Assembly (NCBI GenBank): GCA_013140485.1
Contig: JABFSS010000116.1
Span: forward strand, 1 to 37,495
Direction: 5' to 3'
Origin: Candidatus Peribacteraceae bacterium
GTDB lineage: Bacteria; Patescibacteriota; Gracilibacteria; Peribacterales; Peribacteraceae
Length of the DNA: 37,495 bases
Shown: positions 2,746 through 16,192 of the stretch, piece by piece
How the letters are laid out: every line of letters starts with the position of its first letter
How positions within the stretch are numbered: position 1 is the first letter of the stretch
The notes under the pieces: model-generated
Database searches by the model: none
What the model saw: only the letters and a program-made list of their open reading frames with translations
What the model was told of the DNA's origin: nothing
Translations under genes and position numbers: made by a program

Positions 2746-2808
2746 GAAAACGAGGAAAACGAGGATCTTGCCCTGAGCGGGCGAAGGGTCCTCGTTTTCC
2801 TCGTTTTT
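2746..2808 (-). terminator. Long inverted repeat (19-20 bp arms of AAAACGAGG units) between the repeat protein and rpoB; probable terminator
   Basis: gaaaacgaggaaaacgagga (2746-2765) pairs with tcctcgttttcctcgttttt (2789-2808). The loop holds ccctgagcgggcgaaggg. Confidence 0.6.
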
Positions 2809-2832: not shown

Positions 2833-5800
2833 TTACGGCAGACACGTCACCATCGTCGTCGCCGTCGCGGAGTTGTTGCTCATATTCGTATCCGTGCCCG
2901 CGGTGGTCGATACGTTCGCCGACTTCGTGAACGGCGTATTGCACCGGTAATCGGAGACGACGCGCAGGAAGACCATGAAGGTCTTGCTCTCGCCGGGCGC
3001 CAAGCTCGGCACGATGCACGTGACTTCCGTTCCGTTGGACGTGCACTCATCGCTGGAGAGCAGGTCGCTGAAGAGGAAGTCCCCGGGCGGCGGCTGAATC
3101 ATCTTGGCCGATGCGACAGTGGTGGTGCCGACGTTCTTCACGACGATCGTTTCGGGGAGATCGAATCCGCGGTTGACCTGCGGCGGCAGACTGAGCGTCA
3201 CCGACAGATCGACGGCTGCACCGCCGCCGTTCGTCTCATCGTTGTCCTGTGAGTTGACGCAGCCGGGATCGGAGGAGTCGACAAGACCGTCTCCGTCGTT
3301 ATCAACGCCGTCGCTGCATTGGGCCGGAGGAGCGGAGTTGAACTCATCATTGTCCTGGCTGTTCACACATCCGGGATCGACTGCATCGGCTTTGCCGTCT
3401 CCGTCGTTGTCGACGCCGTCCTGGCATTGCGATTTCGGATTCGTTTCGTCGTTGTCGGTCGCGGCGCTGCAACTGAAGTCGCTCAAGTCCGTAAATCCGT
3501 CGCCGTCGTTATCGATGCCGTCTTGGCACTGGGCGAGTGCGCAGACGGGCGGGAATCCGCAGAAGGTGAATGACGAGTAGCCGTTGCCCCCAAAGGTGAT
3601 GCCATTCGTGCCGAAGCCATTATGGAAACCCACTCCCTGAATTGCGGACGCGGCGCTGCCGCCGGCGCCGATGGACATGGACGGGGCGGAACCTGCGGGC
3701 ACTTTGGTGCCGTTGCTGAAGACGAGCTCAATGGCATCGATGTTATTGCCGACATTGCTGACCGGACCCGGCGTGAACGCCTGGACGGTGAAGCAAGGAC
3801 CGCTCGAATCCAATTGACCCGCGGAGTTGCTGACGAAGAAGTCGTACTTCTCGCCAAAAGTCAGGCCGGTATCAAGGTCTGCGTTGCCGGGACCTTGCGC
3901 GATGTCCTGGATCAGACGCACGTCATTTTTGGCGTAGCTGTACTTGGCGGTCGGCTCAGGAGTGGGACCGGACGATTGTTCGTAGATATCAAACCCCACG
4001 AGTCCCGGCATGTTCAGAAGAGACGTGGTGGGATTGGGGCACGAAGAGGAATTCGACTCGTCCGTATCTTGCGCATTGGAACATCCCGGATCCTGCGGGA
4101 AATCGACGAGTCCGTCGCCGTCGTTGTCGATGCCGTCCTGGCATTGCGCGGCCGGAGCGGCATTGGATTCATCGTTGTCTTGCTTGCTCGAGCAACCTGC
4201 ATCCTGCGGGAAGTCGACTGCGCCGTCGCCGTCGTTATCGAAACCGTCCTGGCACTGCGATTTCGGGTTCGTCTCATCATTGTCCGTCGCGGAACTGCAA
4301 CTGAAGTCCGCGGAATCGGTCGCGCCGTCACCGTCGTTATCGATACCGTCATTGCACTGGAATACTGTCGGAGGAGGCGGGCCGGAGCAGGTGATAAGAA
4401 CGGAATCCGTCGAGGTGTTGTTGGACGAATTACCGTCGACTGCCGAGGTCGTGCTGACCGTCGCCTGTTTAGTGATGGTCGAGTTGCATGCCTGGGAAGG
4501 CGAGACTGTCAGGTACGTCCAGAAAACGGTGGACTGGCCGGGCGCGAGGTTACCGACGGTGCACGTCACGGTCACGCCGTTCGAAGAACAATTTTGGCTG
4601 GAGAGCGAGGAATTGAACGTGAGACCGGCGGGGAGCGCCTGCGTCACCAAGGAACTCGCAATCGCCACGGAACCCACGTTCTGGACCGCAATTTTCTCCG
4701 GCATGTTGTCACCGCGATTGATCTGCGGATCGATGGCGAGGAACACCGCGAGATCCGCGTTCACGGGCGGCGCGTTGAATTCGCTGTCGTCCTGCAAGCT
4801 CACGCATCCCTGATCCGACACGTCGACGAATCCGTCGCCGTCGTTATCGATGCCGTCCTGACACTGGGCCTTGGGGAAGGTTTCGTCATTGTCTGTCGGT
4901 GAACTGCAGCTGAAGTCGCTCGGGAAGTCGGTCGCGCCGTCGTTGTCGTTGTCGATGCCGTCCTGGCACTGCGCGGCAACCGGCTGATTGAATTCGATAT
5001 TGTCCTGCTTGCTCGCGCAACCCGGATCCTGCGGGAAGTCGACGAGGCCGTCGGCATCGTTATCGACACCGTCCTGGCATTGCGACTTCGGGTTCGTCTC
5101 GTCGTTGTCGGTCGGGGCGTCGCAACTGAAATCATTCGGGAAGTCCGCGGCTCCATCGTTGTCATTATCAATGCCGTCTTGGCATTGCGCGGCCGGCGGA
5201 GGCGGGTTCCCGCCGCACGTCACGCGGAATGAATCCGAAGCGGTGTTGTTTGCGGCATTGATGTCGGTGACACCGATGGCGGTGACCGTCGCTTGTTTGT
5301 TGACGATCGAATCGCAGGGCCATGTGGAGGGAATCGTGAGGAAAACGACGAAGGTCTTCGACTGTCCCGGAGCGAGACTGGCCACGGTGCAATCGATGCT
5401 GACGCCGTTGAAGGCGCATGCGGGATCGGACAGGGCGGCGTTGTATCCGAGACCCGTCGGAACGATTTGCTTTACCGTGGCGCTCGGCACCGTGACGGAA
5501 CCGACATTCTGCACGCCAATCTTCTCAGCCATATTGTCGCCGCGGTTGATCTGCGGATCGATATCGAGACTGACTGCGAGATCGGCGCCGGCGGGAGGCG
5601 GAGGAGCATTGAACTCACCATCATCCTGCTTGCTTGTGCAACCCGGATCGCCGGGGAAGTCCGTCTGACCATCGCCATCGTTATCGATGCCATCCTGGCA
5701 TTGCGACTTCGGGTTCGTCTCGTCGTTATCCGTCGGAGCACTGCAACTGAAGTCGTTGGGGAAATCCACGGCTCCATCATTGTCGTTGTCGATGCCGTCC

Positions 5801-8220
5801 TGACATTGGAAGAGGGTGGGCTGAGTGAACTCATTATTGTCCTGATTGCTGGAACAGCCGGAATCCTGCGGGAAGTCGGTTGCGCCGTCTGCGTCGTTAT
5901 CAACGCCATCCTGGCATTGGGCTTTGGGATTCGCTTCGTCGTTGTCGGACGAAGAACCGCAGCTGAAGTCGTTCGGGAAGTCTGTGGCTCCATCGTTGTC
6001 ATTATCGATGCCGTCGCTGCATTGCGGCGCGGGCGGCGGGCCGTCCGGACAGGTGATGAGGACGTTCCCCGACGCGGTGTTATTTGCCGGATTCGTATCG
6101 GTGGCCGACGTCGTGGTGACGGTGTCCTGGAATGTTGCGGCAGAACCGCAGGGCGTCGTTGCGGGAACGAGCAATGCAACTTGGAAAGCAATGGACGCGC
6201 CTGGAGCGAGGTTCGAAACCGGGCAAGTGACGAATGCGGTATCCGACGTGCAGGCGGGATTCGAGGACGCGGGAACGAAAACGTATCCGGCCGGAATCGG
6301 CTGCTTCAAAACGGCGGACGCAACGGCCACGCTACCGAGGTTTTTTACACCGAGAATTTGCGTGAGATTGGTGCCCCGGTGGTTTTGCGGGGGAACCGAA
6401 ATAGTCGCTTGCAGGTCGACACCCGCTCCGCCTCCACCGTTCGTTTCGTCGTTGTCCTGCTTGCTCGCACATCCGGAATCCTGTGAGAAATCAGAGAGAC
6501 CGTCTCCGTCGTTATCGACGCCATCCTGGCACTGCGCCTTGGGATTGGTTTCGTCGGTGTCGGTCGCGGAGCTGCAACTGAAGTCGTTCGGGAAGTCGAC
6601 TGCACCGTCGCCATCGTTATCGACGCCGTCGGAGCATTGTGAAGCTGTTCCGTTGCAGGATTTCTGGAAGTTCAGCAGATTCACGTAGTTCTCCGTACGC
6701 TTGGGGCCGCAACTCAGCAGTCCCGTCTCGTTGGTATTGAATACCACCGATCCGTGCCCGTTCTGGGCCGGCGTGAATGCAATGGCAACCTGTGCCGTGG
6801 AATTGAGGATCGCGATCGACGACGGCAATGTGCCGCCCCATGCGGCAGAATTAGTGAAGGTGATCAGCGCATCGGTATTGCGGCCCACAATTTTTTCACC
6901 GGTGAAGATGGGATGCGTGGTTGTCACCGCTTGGCACGCTCCGCCTGCGGTATTATCAAGCGTGCCACTGAACTGTATGCCAAGATTTCCGGCGATTTGG
7001 TTCACGCGCGCCGTGCAATTGCCGAGGCGCTGCTGACCGTGCCCGGTGTCGCCGTACGCATCGTCCGCTGTGAGGCTCAAGCTTCCACCCGCGAGGTAGA
7101 AGCTGCGGATCACAGCGAGTTCAGCTGACGAGAGAAGCCCCGTATTGCCGCCGCAACCGTTGTGGAAGTACGAGATATCAAAATTATTCTTGTTGAGGAC
7201 GGAAGACGTGATCGTGGGAAGTGAATTCCTATTGTAAAACGTAACGTTGTATCCGAGATTAACAAGGCCTTGCTCTTCGGATGGAATAAGTGGCGGGTTC
7301 GGTTGAAGATCAATGTAGATGATGCGCGCTGCACGGCACGAAATCTGATCGGATTCGTCATTGTCCTGCGCGTTGACGCAGCCGGCATCAACCGCGTCGA
7401 ATTTTCCGTCACCATCGTTGTCGATGCCGTCCTGGCACTGCGACTTCTGGTTCGTTTCGTCGTTGTCGGTCGGAGCGTCGCAACTGAAGTCATTCGGGAA
7501 GTCGGTCGCACCGTCACCGTCGTTATCGATGCCGTCGTTGCACTGCACATCGCCGCATGCGGCCGGGTACCCTCCGAACGTGAATCTGGAGTAGCCGTTG
7601 CCTCCAAAGGTGATGCCATTCGTGCCGAAGCCATTATGGAAACCTACTCCCTGAATGGAGGACGCGGCGTTGCCTCCGACGCCGATGGACATGGACGGGA
7701 CGGAGCCGGCGGCCACCTTGGTGCCATTGCTGAAGACAAGTTCGATCGCATCGATGTTATTGCCCACGTTGCTGACCAGTCCGGGCGTCCAGGCTTCGAC
7801 CGTAAAGTACGCGCCCGTCGGATCCAATTGACCCGCGGCATTGCTGACGAAGAAGTCGTACTTCTCGCCGAGAGTCAGGCCGGTATCAAGGTCTGCATTG
7901 CCGGGACCTTGCGCGATGTCCTGGATCAGACGCACGTCATTTTTGGCGTAGCTGTACTTGGCGGTCGGCTCAGGAGTGGGACCGGACGATTGTTCGTAGA
8001 TATCAAATCCCACGAGTCCCGGCATGTTCAGAAGAGACGTGATGGGATTGCTACAGGCTGCCGGCGCGTTCTGACTTACCTGAAGTGCCGATCCGGAAAC
8101 GTCGTACGCCGTTCTCGCGTGAGCGAACGCCGGAAACAGAGTTGCGGACAAAACCATCGCGGTCATCGTGAAACATCCCACAAATTTTTGAAGTCGCAGG
8201 AGACAAAAACGGCTTTGCAT
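2833..8220 (-). CDS. Large secreted repeat protein: signal peptide, 18 Cys/Asp-rich 'CxDGxDNDxDG' units, four DUF11/CARDB-like domains, two copies of a ~160-aa domain
   Basis: ORF of ~1,795 aa. N-terminal signal peptide ...MTAMVLSATLFPAFAHA. Repeats such as QCQDGIDNDGDGAVDFPNDFSCSSATDNDETNPKS resemble thrombospondin-type-3/EF-hand-like Ca-binding repeats. DUF11-like units: ADLAVSLDIDPQINRGDNMAEKIGVQNVGSVTV.... Confidence 0.9.
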   Translation of the reverse strand: MQSRFCLLRLQKFVGCFTMTAMVLSATLFPAFAHARTAYDVSGSALQVSQNAPAACSNPITSLLNMPGLVGFDIYEQSSGPTPEPTAKYSYAKNDVRLIQDIAQGPGNADLDTGLTLGEKYDFFVSNAAGQLDPTGAYFTVEAWTPGLVSNVGNNIDAIELVFSNGTKVAAGSVPSMSIGVGGNAASSIQGVGFHNGFGTNGITFGGNGYSRFTFGGYPAACGDVQCNDGIDNDGDGATDFPNDFSCDAPTDNDETNQKSQCQDGIDNDGDGKFDAVDAGCVNAQDNDESDQISCRAARIIYIDLQPNPPLIPSEEQGLVNLGYNVTFYNRNSLPTITSSVLNKNNFDISYFHNGCGGNTGLLSSAELAVIRSFYLAGGSLSLTADDAYGDTGHGQQRLGNCTARVNQIAGNLGIQFSGTLDNTAGGACQAVTTTHPIFTGEKIVGRNTDALITFTNSAAWGGTLPSSIAILNSTAQVAIAFTPAQNGHGSVVFNTNETGLLSCGPKRTENYVNLLNFQKSCNGTASQCSDGVDNDGDGAVDFPNDFSCSSATDTDETNPKAQCQDGVDNDGDGLSDFSQDSGCASKQDNDETNGGGGAGVDLQATISVPPQNHRGTNLTQILGVKNLGSVAVASAVLKQPIPAGYVFVPASSNPACTSDTAFVTCPVSNLAPGASIAFQVALLVPATTPCGSAATFQDTVTTTSATDTNPANNTASGNVLITCPDGPPPAPQCSDGIDNDNDGATDFPNDFSCGSSSDNDEANPKAQCQDGVDNDADGATDFPQDSGCSSNQDNNEFTQPTLFQCQDGIDNDNDGAVDFPNDFSCSAPTDNDETNPKSQCQDGIDNDGDGQTDFPGDPGCTSKQDDGEFNAPPPPAGADLAVSLDIDPQINRGDNMAEKIGVQNVGSVTVPSATVKQIVPTGLGYNAALSDPACAFNGVSIDCTVASLAPGQSKTFVVFLTIPSTWPCDSIVNKQATVTAIGVTDINAANNTASDSFRVTCGGNPPPPAAQCQDGIDNDNDGAADFPNDFSCDAPTDNDETNPKSQCQDGVDNDADGLVDFPQDPGCASKQDNIEFNQPVAAQCQDGIDNDNDGATDFPSDFSCSSPTDNDETFPKAQCQDGIDNDGDGFVDVSDQGCVSLQDDSEFNAPPVNADLAVFLAIDPQINRGDNMPEKIAVQNVGSVAIASSLVTQALPAGLTFNSSLSSQNCSSNGVTVTCTVGNLAPGQSTVFWTYLTVSPSQACNSTITKQATVSTTSAVDGNSSNNTSTDSVLITCSGPPPPTVFQCNDGIDNDGDGATDSADFSCSSATDNDETNPKSQCQDGFDNDGDGAVDFPQDAGCSSKQDNDESNAAPAAQCQDGIDNDGDGLVDFPQDPGCSNAQDTDESNSSSCPNPTTSLLNMPGLVGFDIYEQSSGPTPEPTAKYSYAKNDVRLIQDIAQGPGNADLDTGLTFGEKYDFFVSNSAGQLDSSGPCFTVQAFTPGPVSNVGNNIDAIELVFSNGTKVPAGSAPSMSIGAGGSAASAIQGVGFHNGFGTNGITFGGNGYSSFTFCGFPPVCALAQCQDGIDNDGDGFTDLSDFSCSAATDNDETNPKSQCQDGVDNDGDGKADAVDPGCVNSQDNDEFNSAPPAQCSDGVDNDGDGLVDSSDPGCVNSQDNDETNGGGAAVDLSVTLSLPPQVNRGFDLPETIVVKNVGTTTVASAKMIQPPPGDFLFSDLLSSDECTSNGTEVTCIVPSLAPGESKTFMVFLRVVSDYRCNTPFTKSANVSTTAGTDTNMSNNSATATTMVTCLP

Positions 8221-8467
8221 ACGCAAGAAGGTGAGAGATAAAAAAGGAAGTTACTGTGAGGCAGACGCAGTCAGCGGTCAATCCTTACCGGGCTGTTTCT
8301 ATCATGTTGTAGCCAATAGTTGCTCTTCCGCCCGTGAGTAAGCGGATGGTGATCATGAATAATTACTAATAAGTAACTTTTAAGTATTATTGTCAATATT
8401 CATGGTATTTGGCTCTGTGTAGGCTTCTTTGGAATTAATTATGAAGGAAATTGTTGTGTAACACAGT

Positions 8468-8487
8468 GCCCTTCGACAGGCTCAGGG
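8468..8487. repeat. Short REP-like palindrome CCCTTCGACAGGCTCAGGG
   Basis: gcccttcgacaggctcaggg; the same CCCT...AGGG design occurs in the loop at 2771-2788. Confidence 0.5.
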
Positions 8488-8515: not shown

Positions 8516-9700
8516 TCAGGATGCAGGTATTTGTTGAGTGACACAGTGAAAAGACCCCCACCCCCAGGTCAGCACGCGGCTGTCGATGGGAACGATTCGG
8601 CGATGCGGAAAACATTTTTGCAGGGTCTCGATGGCCGCAGCGTCATTGGGGTCATTCCACACGGGAAGGAGGACGCATTCATTCGCAACATAGAAATTCG
8701 CGTAGCTTGCGGGAATGCGGAATCCCTCGTCGGGAACACCGGACATGCTGCTCGGTTTTTTCCCGTGCACCAGCACCGGCTTCGGCTGGGCGGTGGTGAT
8801 GATCTCAAGTGCGTGGCCGTCCTGATCTTTCATCGATTGCAGCCGTCGGAGATTTTCCTGCAGCGGCGCGTAATCGGGATCGGCGGAATTCTCGTTGATG
8901 ATCGTGACGACGGTCCGCGGTCCGACGAAGCGCGCGAGATCGTCGACATGCCCGCTCGTGTCGTCACCCATGATCCCCTTCCCCAGCCAGAGGACGTTGG
9001 TGACGCCGAGGTGATCTTTGAGCGACTGCTCGATCTGCTCCTTCGTCATGCCGGGATTGCGGTTGGGATTCAGGAGACAGTCTTCCGTCGTGAGAAGAGT
9101 GCCCAGTCCGTTGACGTCGATGGATCCTCCTTCGAGGATCATCGGCACGGTGAGTGACTGCTGACCGAGTTTTCGCGCGATCAGTGTTGGTACTTGATCA
9201 TCCAGTTCGTACTCCCACTGTCCTCCCCATGCGTTGTAGCCCCAATCGAGAAAAAGTCTCCCCTCTCCTGGAGCCTGTCCCGAGCCGAGCCGAGGGGCAG
9301 CGGGAGAGGGTGGCGCCGCAGCGCCGGGTGAGGGCTGTTTGACGACCACAATCGGCCCATGATCGCGCGCCCAACTGAAGTTATTCGGAATGCGGTGAAG
9401 ATGAACGCGGTTGCCCTGCACGTTTGCCTTCTTCATTTCACTCTTGGCGTTTTTTTCGGTCTCATCATCATTGATAAGCACATGGACGTCCTCGCCCACT
9501 TCCAATTCCTTGACCATCCGTGCCCAGATTGCAGGCACTTGATCAAAGAGACCCGGCCAGTGGGGATGGACGCCGTGTTCGCCTGGACGAGAATGGGGCC
9601 AGGTGAGGATGGTGGCCTCATGCGGTTCCCATTCGGCCGGCATTCTGTATCCCGATGCTGATTGCGGTGACGAGGCCATATGAGAAGAATTGTGAATCAT
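8516..9700 (-). CDS. aguA: Agmatine deiminase
   Basis: MPAEWEPHEATILTWPHSRP..., ARDHGP..., LDWGYNAWGGQWE, catalytic-Cys region WGWGSFHCVTQQIPA. Alternative start at MASSPQ. Confidence 0.93.
   Translation of the reverse strand: MIHNSSHMASSPQSASGYRMPAEWEPHEATILTWPHSRPGEHGVHPHWPGLFDQVPAIWARMVKELEVGEDVHVLINDDETEKNAKSEMKKANVQGNRVHLHRIPNNFSWARDHGPIVVVKQPSPGAAAPPSPAAPRLGSGQAPGEGRLFLDWGYNAWGGQWEYELDDQVPTLIARKLGQQSLTVPMILEGGSIDVNGLGTLLTTEDCLLNPNRNPGMTKEQIEQSLKDHLGVTNVLWLGKGIMGDDTSGHVDDLARFVGPRTVVTIINENSADPDYAPLQENLRRLQSMKDQDGHALEIITTAQPKPVLVHGKKPSSMSGVPDEGFRIPASYANFYVANECVLLPVWNDPNDAAAIETLQKCFPHRRIVPIDSRVLTWGWGSFHCVTQQIPAS
9254..9334. repeat. GC-rich palindromic repeat element inserted in frame within aguA
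   Basis: ctcccctctcctggagcctgtcccgagccgagccgaggggcagcgggagagggtggcgccgcagcgccgggtgaggg. Encodes PSPGAAAPPSPAAPRLGSGQAPGEG between the expected RDHGPIVVV and LFLDWGYNAWGG motifs. Confidence 0.75.
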
Positions 9701-9746
9701 GAAGCATGAATTACGAACCGTGATTCATGATTCATCTTTCATGATT
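9692..9746. repeat. Inverted array of ATGATTC/GAATCAT units between aguA and aguB
   Basis: gaatcatgaagcatgaattacgaaccgtgattcatgattcatctttcatgattca. Confidence 0.55.
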
Positions 9747-10609
9747 CAGGACACAAGATCATCGTACACTTCGGGTCTTCGATTCTTCAGAAACATCCAT
9801 GCATCTTGCAGCGGCTTCACTTTGCCCAGATCGCACTTCACAATGACGATCTCTTCTTGATCTCCCGCCTTGGCGAGGATCGTGCTGCTGGGATCAGCGA
9901 CGAACGATCCGCCCCAGAAGTTCATCGCGGATTCCCTGCCGACACGATTGAGCGCGCAGACGAACACGTTGTTGGACGCCGCGTGTCCGAGCTGGGCATT
10001 GCGCCACATCTGTTCCCAATCGCCGGTGATGTTCTCTTCGACCGAATCATCGATCGTCCCGATGGCCGTGGGATAGAAGAGAATTTCGGCACCCTTGAGG
10101 ACGGCCATGCGGGCCGCCTCGGGATACCACTGGTCGTAACAGATCAGCGGGCAGATCTTTCCGTATTTCGTATCGAAGACTTTGATGCCGGTATCGCCCG
10201 GGCTGAAGTAATGTTGTTCGTGATAGAGGATGTCTTCGGGAATGTGCGTCTTTCGGTACGTGCCGAGCAACACACCGTCGGTATCGAAGACGGGCGTGGT
10301 GTTGTAGAACTTTCCATCGGCGTTCTTCTCGAAGATAGATCCGCCGACGAGGACGATCTGATGCTTCTTCGCGATCTGACTGAGCGCCTGCGTTGTGGAT
10401 CCGGGAATCGGCTCCGCGGTCTCAAAAGCCGATTCGTCATCTTTTTTCTGGCAGAAGTACGGGCTCAGGAAGAGCTCGGGGAGGCAGACGATCTGAGCAC
10501 CTTTCGTGACTGCGTGCGCGATCATTTCCTCTGCGTGACGGAGATTCTGCACAGAATCCGCAGACATCTTCATTTGGATGAGGCCGACTTTGACGATAGG
10601 TCGTAGCAC
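9746..10609 (-). CDS. aguB: N-carbamoylputrescine amidase (nitrilase superfamily)
   Basis: VKVGLIQMKMSADSVQNL..., CLPELFLSPYF, YRKTHIPED, ICPLICYDQWYPEAAR, GGSFVADPSS. The ORF extends to 10684; a GTG at 10609 fits the family N-terminus better, but the start is uncertain. Confidence 0.92.
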   Translation of the reverse strand: MLRPIVKVGLIQMKMSADSVQNLRHAEEMIAHAVTKGAQIVCLPELFLSPYFCQKKDDESAFETAEPIPGSTTQALSQIAKKHQIVLVGGSIFEKNADGKFYNTTPVFDTDGVLLGTYRKTHIPEDILYHEQHYFSPGDTGIKVFDTKYGKICPLICYDQWYPEAARMAVLKGAEILFYPTAIGTIDDSVEENITGDWEQMWRNAQLGHAASNNVFVCALNRVGRESAMNFWGGSFVADPSSTILAKAGDQEEIVIVKCDLGKVKPLQDAWMFLKNRRPEVYDDLVS

Positions 10610-10616
10610 GAGAAGG

Positions 10617-10720
10617 AGAATAATAGAATAATAGAGTATTAGGAACCACTGGCTGACAAGAATGGCGGCATAAACCGCGCACAACTGTTCCTACTATTCT
10701 ATTATTCTATTACTCTAATC
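10617..10720. repeat. Inverted repeat with AATAATAG-unit arms in the divergent aguB/dhs intergenic region
   Basis: gaataatagaataatagagtattaggaac (10617-10645) versus gttcctactattctattattctattactctaatc (10687-10720). Confidence 0.6.
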
Positions 10721-14828: not shown

Positions 14829-15851
14829 ATGGAGATTCGACTTCTTACCGATCCGGAGGACCTGAAGCGCTACGGCGAATGGATCCGAACACACCCGGAA
14901 GGCTCGCTCTGGCAATCGCCGGAATGGAAAACGTACCAGGAATCCCTGGGCCGGCAGGTGAGGATCTACGCGGCGATGGAGGGGGCGGAGATCCGTGCCT
15001 CGGCGCTGGTGGTGATTGACCACACGACGTTCGGGCTGACGACGTGGGAGATTCCTCGCGGCCCGCTCGGAATAATTGAAAATGGAAAATTGAGAATTGA
15101 GAATAAAAACTTTCTGGAAAAGATTATCCGAGATGCAAAAGATGACCGCTGTTTATCAATCTATTGCTCTCCCGTTCATCCATTCTCAATTCTCAATTCT
15201 CAATTCTCAATTTCACGCCGATTGGTGATGCCCGAAGCCACCCGCATCATTGATCTCACCCTGAGCGAAGAAGATCTTCTGGCGCAGATGAAACCGAAAG
15301 GCCGGTACAATATCCGACTAGCCGAGAAGCACGGCGTTCGCGTAATGCCCTCCAGTGACGTGCAGGCCTTTGCGCGCTTGGCAGAGGAGACTGCTCGACG
15401 GGACGGTTTCAGAGGCCATTCTGCAGCCTTTTATGAACGATTTTTGACCTGTCTACCGGGCGCATTTTTGCTGTTCGCACTTCCTCCAGAGATTGTCATC
15501 CCGAGTAGCTCGCTGCGGAGCAGCGAGCGTATCGAGGGGGCAGGGCTCTTGGGGGTGATCTGGGGTAAGACTGGCATCTACTACTACGGAGCTTCCTCGC
15601 ATGCGCAAAAGGAACTCATGGCGCCCTATCTGCTCCAGTGGTCAGCAATGAAGCACTGCAAAGCTCATGGATGCACTTCGTATGACCTCTTTGGTATTGC
15701 CCCCGAAGGCGCAGTCGATCATCCATGGTCGGGAGTGAGTGACTTCAAAGTGAAGTTCGGCGGCTCGGTTGTGAACTATCCGCCGGAACAGGAGATTGCC
15801 CTCCGCCCTTTTCTCAAATATCTCCTGAAAATAAAACGAGGCTTGGTATGA
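14829..15851 (+). CDS. FemAB/peptidoglycan bridge-type aminoacyltransferase (GNAT fold)
   Basis: [22 protein letters not shown]..., [46 protein letters not shown]...[11 protein letters not shown]. Confidence 0.88.
15074..15213. repeat. Inverted array of GAATTGA units inside the femAB-like CDS
   Basis: aattgaaaatggaaaattgagaattgagaat (15074-15104) and attctcaattctcaattctcaattctcaattt (15182-15213), reverse complements over 18-19 nt. Confidence 0.75.
15495..15538 (+). repeat. GTAGCTCG-hairpin repeat, copy 1, inside the femAB-like CDS
   Basis: gtcatcccgagtagctcgctgcggagcagcgagcgtatcgagggg. Confidence 0.75.
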
Positions 15852-16068: not shown

Positions 16069-16147
16069 GCGGACAGAGTAGCAAAATCTCGTCCTGAGAA
16101 AAGCCCTTTTGGAAGCCAATAACCGGCTCAATCTTCTCTCAGCGTTT

Positions 16148-16192
16148 GTCATTCCGAGTAGCTCGTGGCGGAGCCACGAGCGTAACGAGGAA
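16148..16192 (+). repeat. GTAGCTCG-hairpin repeat, copy 2 (intergenic)
   Basis: gtcattccgagtagctcgtggcggagccacgagcgtaacgaggaa. Confidence 0.75.

What the first reader, a model, noticed from the sequence alone, without database searches (positions are those of the whole stretch)
9254..9334. Palindromic repeat element inserted in frame inside aguA, adding about 25 aa
Between two canonical agmatine-deiminase motifs (ARDHGPIVVVKQ and LFLDWGYNAWGG) lies PSPGAAAPPSPAAPRLGSGQAPGEG. The DNA encoding it is a GC-rich composite palindrome (ctcccctctcctgg...cgggagaggg...gggtgaggg) of a kind normally intergenic. The frame and catalytic motifs are intact, so the element appears tolerated in a loop. This parallels Rickettsia palindromic elements (RPEs), which are also found within ORFs.
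Basis: partly seen in the sequence, partly recalled or inferred. Interest (0 to 1): 0.72.

Follow-up and report, generated by a model that had tools for sequence, protein, structure and literature searches.

The report
In-frame mobile palindrome inside agmatine deiminase
A short repeated DNA palindrome that is scattered through this uncultured Peribacteria-type genome has landed inside an apparently intact metabolic gene, adding a floppy 25-residue loop, and the same has happened in at least a dozen other conserved genes of the same genome.

Summary
AguA (window 8516-9700, minus) carries 25 residues (123-147; DNA 9260-9334) where close homologues have a short turn. The two AguAs found in sister species of the genus lack it, and AlphaFold2 puts it in a low-confidence loop between two strands. 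Pieces of its DNA recur about 30 times in the genome (BLAST E<=10; about 20 at E<0.05). It is composite: a two-hairpin repeat (family A, about 15 copies) whose first hairpin loop holds a second, 27-bp repeat (family B).

Intragenic insertion is genome-wide. Palindrome families A, B, C, E and probably D sit in frame in conserved genes: carA (twice), murB, yebC, der, trpE, HMG-CoA reductase, diphosphomevalonate decarboxylase, tsaB, a femAB-type gene in this window, and others. Several of these loops hold a different element in a sister species. AguA loops in other phyla also contain palindromes.

Most likely these are REP-like non-autonomous mobile palindromes tolerated in surface loops, the same kind as Rickettsia RPEs and the intragenic REPs of Di Nocera et al. 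2013. One REP-associated tyrosine transposase gene is present, but a role for it is only inferred. I found no earlier report for this bacterial group in the searched library.

The parts
8516..9700 (-). aguA, agmatine deiminase (PF04371; TIGR03380 below its cut-off), 394 aa, the host gene
   Evidence: residues invariant in 38 homologues present
9260..9334 (-). Inserted 25 codons, residues 123-147 PSPGAAAPPSPAAPRLGSGQAPGEG
   Evidence: gap in solved homologues; absent in G023 and G024; loop 39 aa against usual 16-21
9261..9335 (+). Family A element: hairpin 1 arms 9261-9268 (CCCTCTCC) and 9303-9310 (GGAGAGGG); hairpin 2 at 9312-9325 (GGCGCCGCAGCGCC); tail GGGTGAGGGC 9326-9335
   Evidence: about 15 copies in the genome with covarying hairpin 2
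9271..9297 (+). Family B element (GAGCCTGTCCCGAGCCGAGCCGAGGGG), 27 bp, in the loop of A's hairpin 1
   Evidence: identical 27-mer at G000:C68:4837; several B copies lie in the loop of another palindrome
9746..10684 (-). aguB-like N-carbamoylputrescine amidase (PF00795), next enzyme of the pathway; context
   Evidence: best NCBIfam match TIGR03381 aguB, below its cut-off
15500..15538 (+). Family C palindrome (CCCGAGTAG-CTCGCTGC-GGA-GCAGCGAG-CGTATCGAGGG) in frame in a FemAB-type gene (14829-15851), giving [14 protein letters not shown]
   Evidence: absent in sister genes G023, G024, G036
15074..15212 (+). Inverted AT-rich repeat pair (15074-15104 and 15182-15212) inside the same FemAB-type gene; read as [13 protein letters not shown] and [11 protein letters not shown]
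   Evidence: (I1), reading frame; not followed by a genome search

Best explanation
The segment is a non-autonomous, REP-like mobile palindrome that inserted into aguA. It survived because it landed in frame in an exposed turn between two strands and is read in a mild Pro/Ser/Ala/Gly/Glu frame. Shown: it is a dispersed multi-copy repeat; it is absent from the homologues in sister species; it lies in a predicted low-confidence loop; insertions of the same and of other families exist in frame in many conserved genes. Inferred: the copies spread as hairpins in single-stranded DNA through a RAYT-type (HUH, IS200-like) enzyme, of which this genome has one gene; out-of-frame or core insertions are removed by selection; the extra peptide itself has little or no function. 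The B part inside hairpin 1 is a second insertion into, or replacement of, the loop of the first element.
For: Copies and structure. In family C, own arms pair at 94% over 8 bp against 51% between copies, with 30 different left arms. In-frame insertion seen against homologues: CarA twice, Der, MurB, YebC, FemAB-type, TrpE, HMG-CoA reductase, MVD and an FAD/NAD reductase, plus Pfam or NCBIfam context for DnaX, GalU, TsaB, PRK07208 and F420 ligase. Frame: all five family A insertions in conserved genes are read in the frame that gives Gly-Glu-Gly from the GGAGAGGG arm. All family E insertions with a recognised host gene read SAQT..(S)EL/AL except the copy in the RAYT gene, which reads VSADAVVCADM because its arms differ; the consensus E element is stop-free in only one frame per strand. 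Loop position. aguA against G023: dN 0.125, dS 2.28. RAYT: NF047646, 81.5 bits against cut-off 80, with a family E palindrome just upstream and another inside its ORF. Family A exists in other genomes of the family (17 of 74).
Against: The sites are not clean insertions: G023 has 18 nt (NRAGER) where G000 has 81 nt, so some ancestral sequence was lost or replaced. No target duplication was seen. Family A has no GTAG or CGTC tag, so it cannot be tied to the RAYT by sequence. RAYT/Y1 genes occur in 53 of 74 family genomes and exact family E only in this one, so presence of such a gene does not predict the element. dN/dS averages over the whole divergence and does not date selection to after the insertion; dS is near saturation.
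Confidence: 0.85

Rival explanations
1. Hairpin-driven local mutagenesis: the palindromes are not inserted by a transposase but are made or perfected in place by template switching at quasi-palindromes, so loop sequence is replaced rather than interrupted.
For: Several insertions are nearly length-neutral (HMG-CoA reductase +3 aa, MVD +4 aa, TsaB about 0). HMG-CoA reductase of G023 has a different, perfect 14+14 nt palindrome at the same codons, differing from G000 by four stem changes each matched in the other arm; MurB shows one such change. Template switching as a route to perfect arms is discussed in PMC6649704.
Against: The same family sequences recur at unrelated loci (27-39 identical bases), which local mutation alone cannot give. 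It could explain maintenance of the arms but not dispersal.
Confidence: 0.15
2. Adaptive insertion: the loops gained a function (binding, regulation by an mRNA hairpin, localisation), so the insertion was selected rather than tolerated.
For: The same loops are occupied in different species (YebC, FemAB-type, AguA).
Against: Different element families and different peptides occupy the same loop, the AguA peptide is predicted with low confidence as a loop, and the hosts are unrelated enzymes. This fits tolerance better.
Confidence: 0.05
3. Assembly or binning artefact, or a pseudogene.
For: The genome is in 130 contigs and its relatives are metagenome assemblies.
Against: The site is interior to a 37-kb contig, frame and invariant residues are intact, an independent species (G023) shares the MurB insertion, and insertions recur on many contigs.
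Confidence: 0.03

Closest known systems
Rickettsia palindromic elements (RPEs; Ogata et al. 2000, 2002, as summarised in PMC10969869)
   Same: Dispersed palindromic repeats, several families, many in frame inside unrelated conserved genes.
   Different: Shorter (about 27-80 bp here against about 150 bp), GC-rich, nested one in another, in a Peribacteria-type genome rather than an alphaproteobacterium. PMC6649704 states that RPEs lose arm identity with time; here arms stay paired with matching changes in the two cases compared.
GTAG/CGTC-tagged intragenic REPs (Di Nocera et al. 2013, PMC3733652)
   Same: 20-40 bp palindromes, mostly intergenic, some inside ORFs; RAYT gene in the genome. Family C has GTAG directly 5' of the stem.
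   Different: Families A, B and E lack the tag next to the stem. The hosts here are mainly metabolic and housekeeping genes, not the DNA-repair bias reported there.
IS elements that target REP palindromes (PMC1525189, title and abstract only)
   Same: One mobile sequence inside the palindrome of another, as B inside A or E.
   Different: B is 27 bp, codes for no enzyme and is itself a short repeat.

Membership tests
Intragenic REP / protein-coding palindrome (general kind) | Multi-copy dispersed palindromic repeat | tested here: met
Intragenic REP / protein-coding palindrome (general kind) | In frame inside a conserved gene, absent in orthologues | tested here: met
GTAG-type REP | Unpaired GTAG at one end of the stem | tested here: not met
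   Not in family A, B or E, so the aguA element is not filed here. Family C does have it.
GTAG-type REP | RAYT gene in the genome, flanked by the cognate repeat | tested here: inconclusive
   RAYT present with family E next to and inside it; the scan found no A or C copy around it
Rickettsia RPE | Sequence match to an RPE family | not tested
   RPE sequences were not fetched. Rfam gave only a tRNA in the window.
Classical DNA transposon / MITE | Target-site duplication at a clean empty site | tested here: not met
   Ancestral sites differ in length and sequence and no duplication is visible; IS200-type enzymes are not expected to make one (own knowledge)

The most novel reading that the evidence does not exclude
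Certain protein loops, the AguA turn among them, are repeated landing sites for unrelated palindromic elements across species and even phyla; and once in a gene the palindromes keep their arms paired by matching changes in both arms, so that the hairpin itself, not its sequence, is what persists.
Probability: 0.4. Interest if true: 0.68.

Novelty: new variant of a known kind. Interest (0 to 1): 0.52.

Why it matters
It extends protein-coding palindromes, best known from Rickettsia and some Proteobacteria and Verrucomicrobia, to a reduced genome of the Candidate Phyla Radiation type. It offers sister species in which full, empty and differently filled sites can be compared gene by gene. That makes two open questions testable: how REP-like palindromes enter genes, and whether their arms are held together by selection or by template-directed repair. 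It is also a warning for gene annotation and structure prediction in such genomes.

Tried and rejected
Folding energy as evidence: not significant against dinucleotide shuffles. Rfam: no match but a tRNA. The whole genome was not available as a file, so the census rests on pattern and BLAST searches and misses diverged copies. Exact family E in sister genomes: none. A Y1/RAYT link across the family: genes in 53 of 74 genomes, not a discriminating test. B copies in L010 and L016 share flanks but show no hairpin around B, so 'B always sits in a hairpin loop' is too strong; five of seven clear B copies do. Self-copies of the long AguA loops of other phyla within their own fetched loci: none of length, apart from a tandem 27-bp match in L180 and a 14-bp match in L239; whether those are genome repeats is open. 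Not all long loops are palindromic (L205, L183 and L240 are not). Open reading frames over element copies without a recognised domain (L107, L120, L132) were not counted as intragenic.

Full report
What is there. The window is contig C93 of a 1.52-Mb, 130-contig genome, 97.6% complete. The closest named AguA relatives are Candidatus Peribacteria and Peregrinibacteria metagenome genomes. The minus-strand ORF 8516-9700 is agmatine deiminase, next to an aguB-like gene, a deoxyhypusine-synthase-like gene and an ornithine/arginine-decarboxylase-like gene, so it sits among polyamine genes. Residues 123-147 are extra. The stretch between the two flanking motifs is 16-21 residues in 88 of 106 homologues and 39 here. 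G023 and G024 of the same genus read GPIVVKNRAGERLFLDW and GPIVIKNQKGERFFLDW; the third member of the genus, G025, had no AguA match. AlphaFold2 on an alignment of 38 sequences (mean pLDDT 87.7) gives strands at 117-121 and 148-154 with a low-confidence loop between them.

The DNA. On the plus strand the element reads CCCTCTCC-TG-[GAGCCTGTCCCGAGCCGAGCCGAGGGG]-CAGCG-GGAGAGGG-T-GGCGCCGCAGCGCC-GGGTGAGGGC. Without the bracket it is family A: the bulk of it is found 39/39 at C26:8133, 37/38 at C26:8619 and 35/35 at C104:3650, about 15 copies in all, and by a strict pattern in 17 of 74 genomes of the family, with almost no match of the reversed control pattern. Its second hairpin varies between copies but stays palindromic (seven variants). 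The bracket is family B, with an identical 27-mer at C68:4837 and one mismatch at C114:21302. At C14, C68 and C114, B lies in the loop of a third palindrome, family E or a near variant of it (TCAGCTCAGACG..CGTCTGAGCTGA, 17 sites by exact pattern), and at C89 in another hairpin. So B inside A in aguA follows a pattern: one palindrome nested in the loop of another. In sister G025, hairpin 2 of an A copy is itself replaced by CCCGAGCGAAGTCGAGGGA (C48:3382).

Genome-wide picture. Family C (CCCGAGTAG-arm-loop-arm-CGTA.CGAGGG) has about 65 copies. Its arms differ between copies but match within a copy: 94% own pairing over 8 bp, 51% between copies, 30 distinct left arms. It has GTAG next to the stem, as in GTAG-type REPs (PMC3733652). 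Most C copies look intergenic. A, B and E are often intragenic: 5 of 15 A copies, 5 of 7 B copies and 8 of 17 E copies lie in frame in genes with a recognised family (one B host, bactofilin-like, is below the Pfam cut-off). The hosts are AguA, CarA (twice), an FAD/NAD oxidoreductase, a PRK07208 flavoprotein, TrpE, DnaX, a bactofilin-like protein, an amine-oxidase-family protein, Der, TsaB, HMG-CoA reductase, diphosphomevalonate decarboxylase, a glycosyltransferase, a protein with an acetyltransferase domain and the RAYT itself. C adds MurB, YebC, the FemAB-type gene of this window (15500-15538), F420 ligase and a PMT-like protein. D, a looser family, appears in GalU and an SDR protein, less securely. 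The CarA and Der insertions stand as gaps in solved homologues. The MurB, TrpE, HMG-CoA reductase, MVD, YebC, FemAB-type and FAD/NAD cases were aligned with sister species.

Same loop, different element. In YebC the same loop holds C in this genome and A in G025. In the FemAB-type protein it holds C here and a CCCCTCCTCC/GGAGGAGGGG hairpin in G032. In AguA, G032 has CCCCGAGCGAAGTCGCGGGG where this genome has A plus B. HMG-CoA reductase has family E here and, at the same codons, a perfect 14+14 nt palindrome in G023 that differs at four stem positions, each matched in the other arm. MurB carries C in both G000 and G023 with one matched change. AguA loops of a planctomycete (13-nt arms, 0 of 200 shuffles) and a Chloroflexaceae genome (11-nt arms, 1 of 200) also hold palindromes. 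An acidobacterial one has two adjacent palindromes with weaker support (p 0.045 for the longer). These were found after looking at the longest loops and are not corrected for that choice; shuffles there were by base, not dinucleotide. The element of aguA itself does not pass that single-arm test (8 nt, p 0.13), because its arms are short and the loop is filled by B.

How it probably works. The simplest account is a set of REP-like, non-autonomous palindromes that spread as folded single strands. Insertions that break a gene are lost; those in frame in loops stay. Reading frame supports selection: all five A insertions in conserved genes are read in the frame that gives Gly-Glu-Gly from the GGAGAGGG arm, and the consensus E element is stop-free in only one frame per strand. 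The genome has one REP-associated tyrosine transposase, just over the NCBIfam cut-off, with E beside it and inside its own ORF. TnpA-REP enzymes process folded single-stranded REP in vitro (PMC8266576, abstract). A link to E or C is therefore reasonable, but a link to A is not shown. Covarying arms can come from selection on the hairpin or from template switching (discussed in PMC6649704). My data do not separate the two.

Standing. Intragenic REPs and protein-coding palindromes are known (RPEs; PMC10969869, PMC3733652). No paper in the searched library reports them for Peribacteria or Peregrinibacteria, but the library lacks most subscription papers. What is new here is the taxon, several co-resident families, nesting, and repeated use of the same loops.

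Noticed in passing
window 8470-8486: A CCTTCGACAGGCTCAGG repeat (family D) just downstream of the aguA stop codon; an identical 17-mer at C112:15629.
   Followed up: partly
window 2747-2807: A 19-nt perfect inverted repeat (AAAACGAGGAAAACGAGGA) enclosing CCTTCGCCCGCTCAGG, another palindrome-in-palindrome.
   Followed up: partly
window 16133-16190: A second, intergenic family C-like copy about 650 bp from the intragenic one, with TTCCGAG in place of CCCGAG.
   Followed up: no
window 2833-8226: A 1797-aa minus-strand protein with many near-identical CQDGIDNDGDG-type repeats and repeated larger blocks.
   Followed up: no
L144:2716-3363: RAYT-like ORF whose own coding sequence carries an in-frame family E palindrome.
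   Followed up: partly
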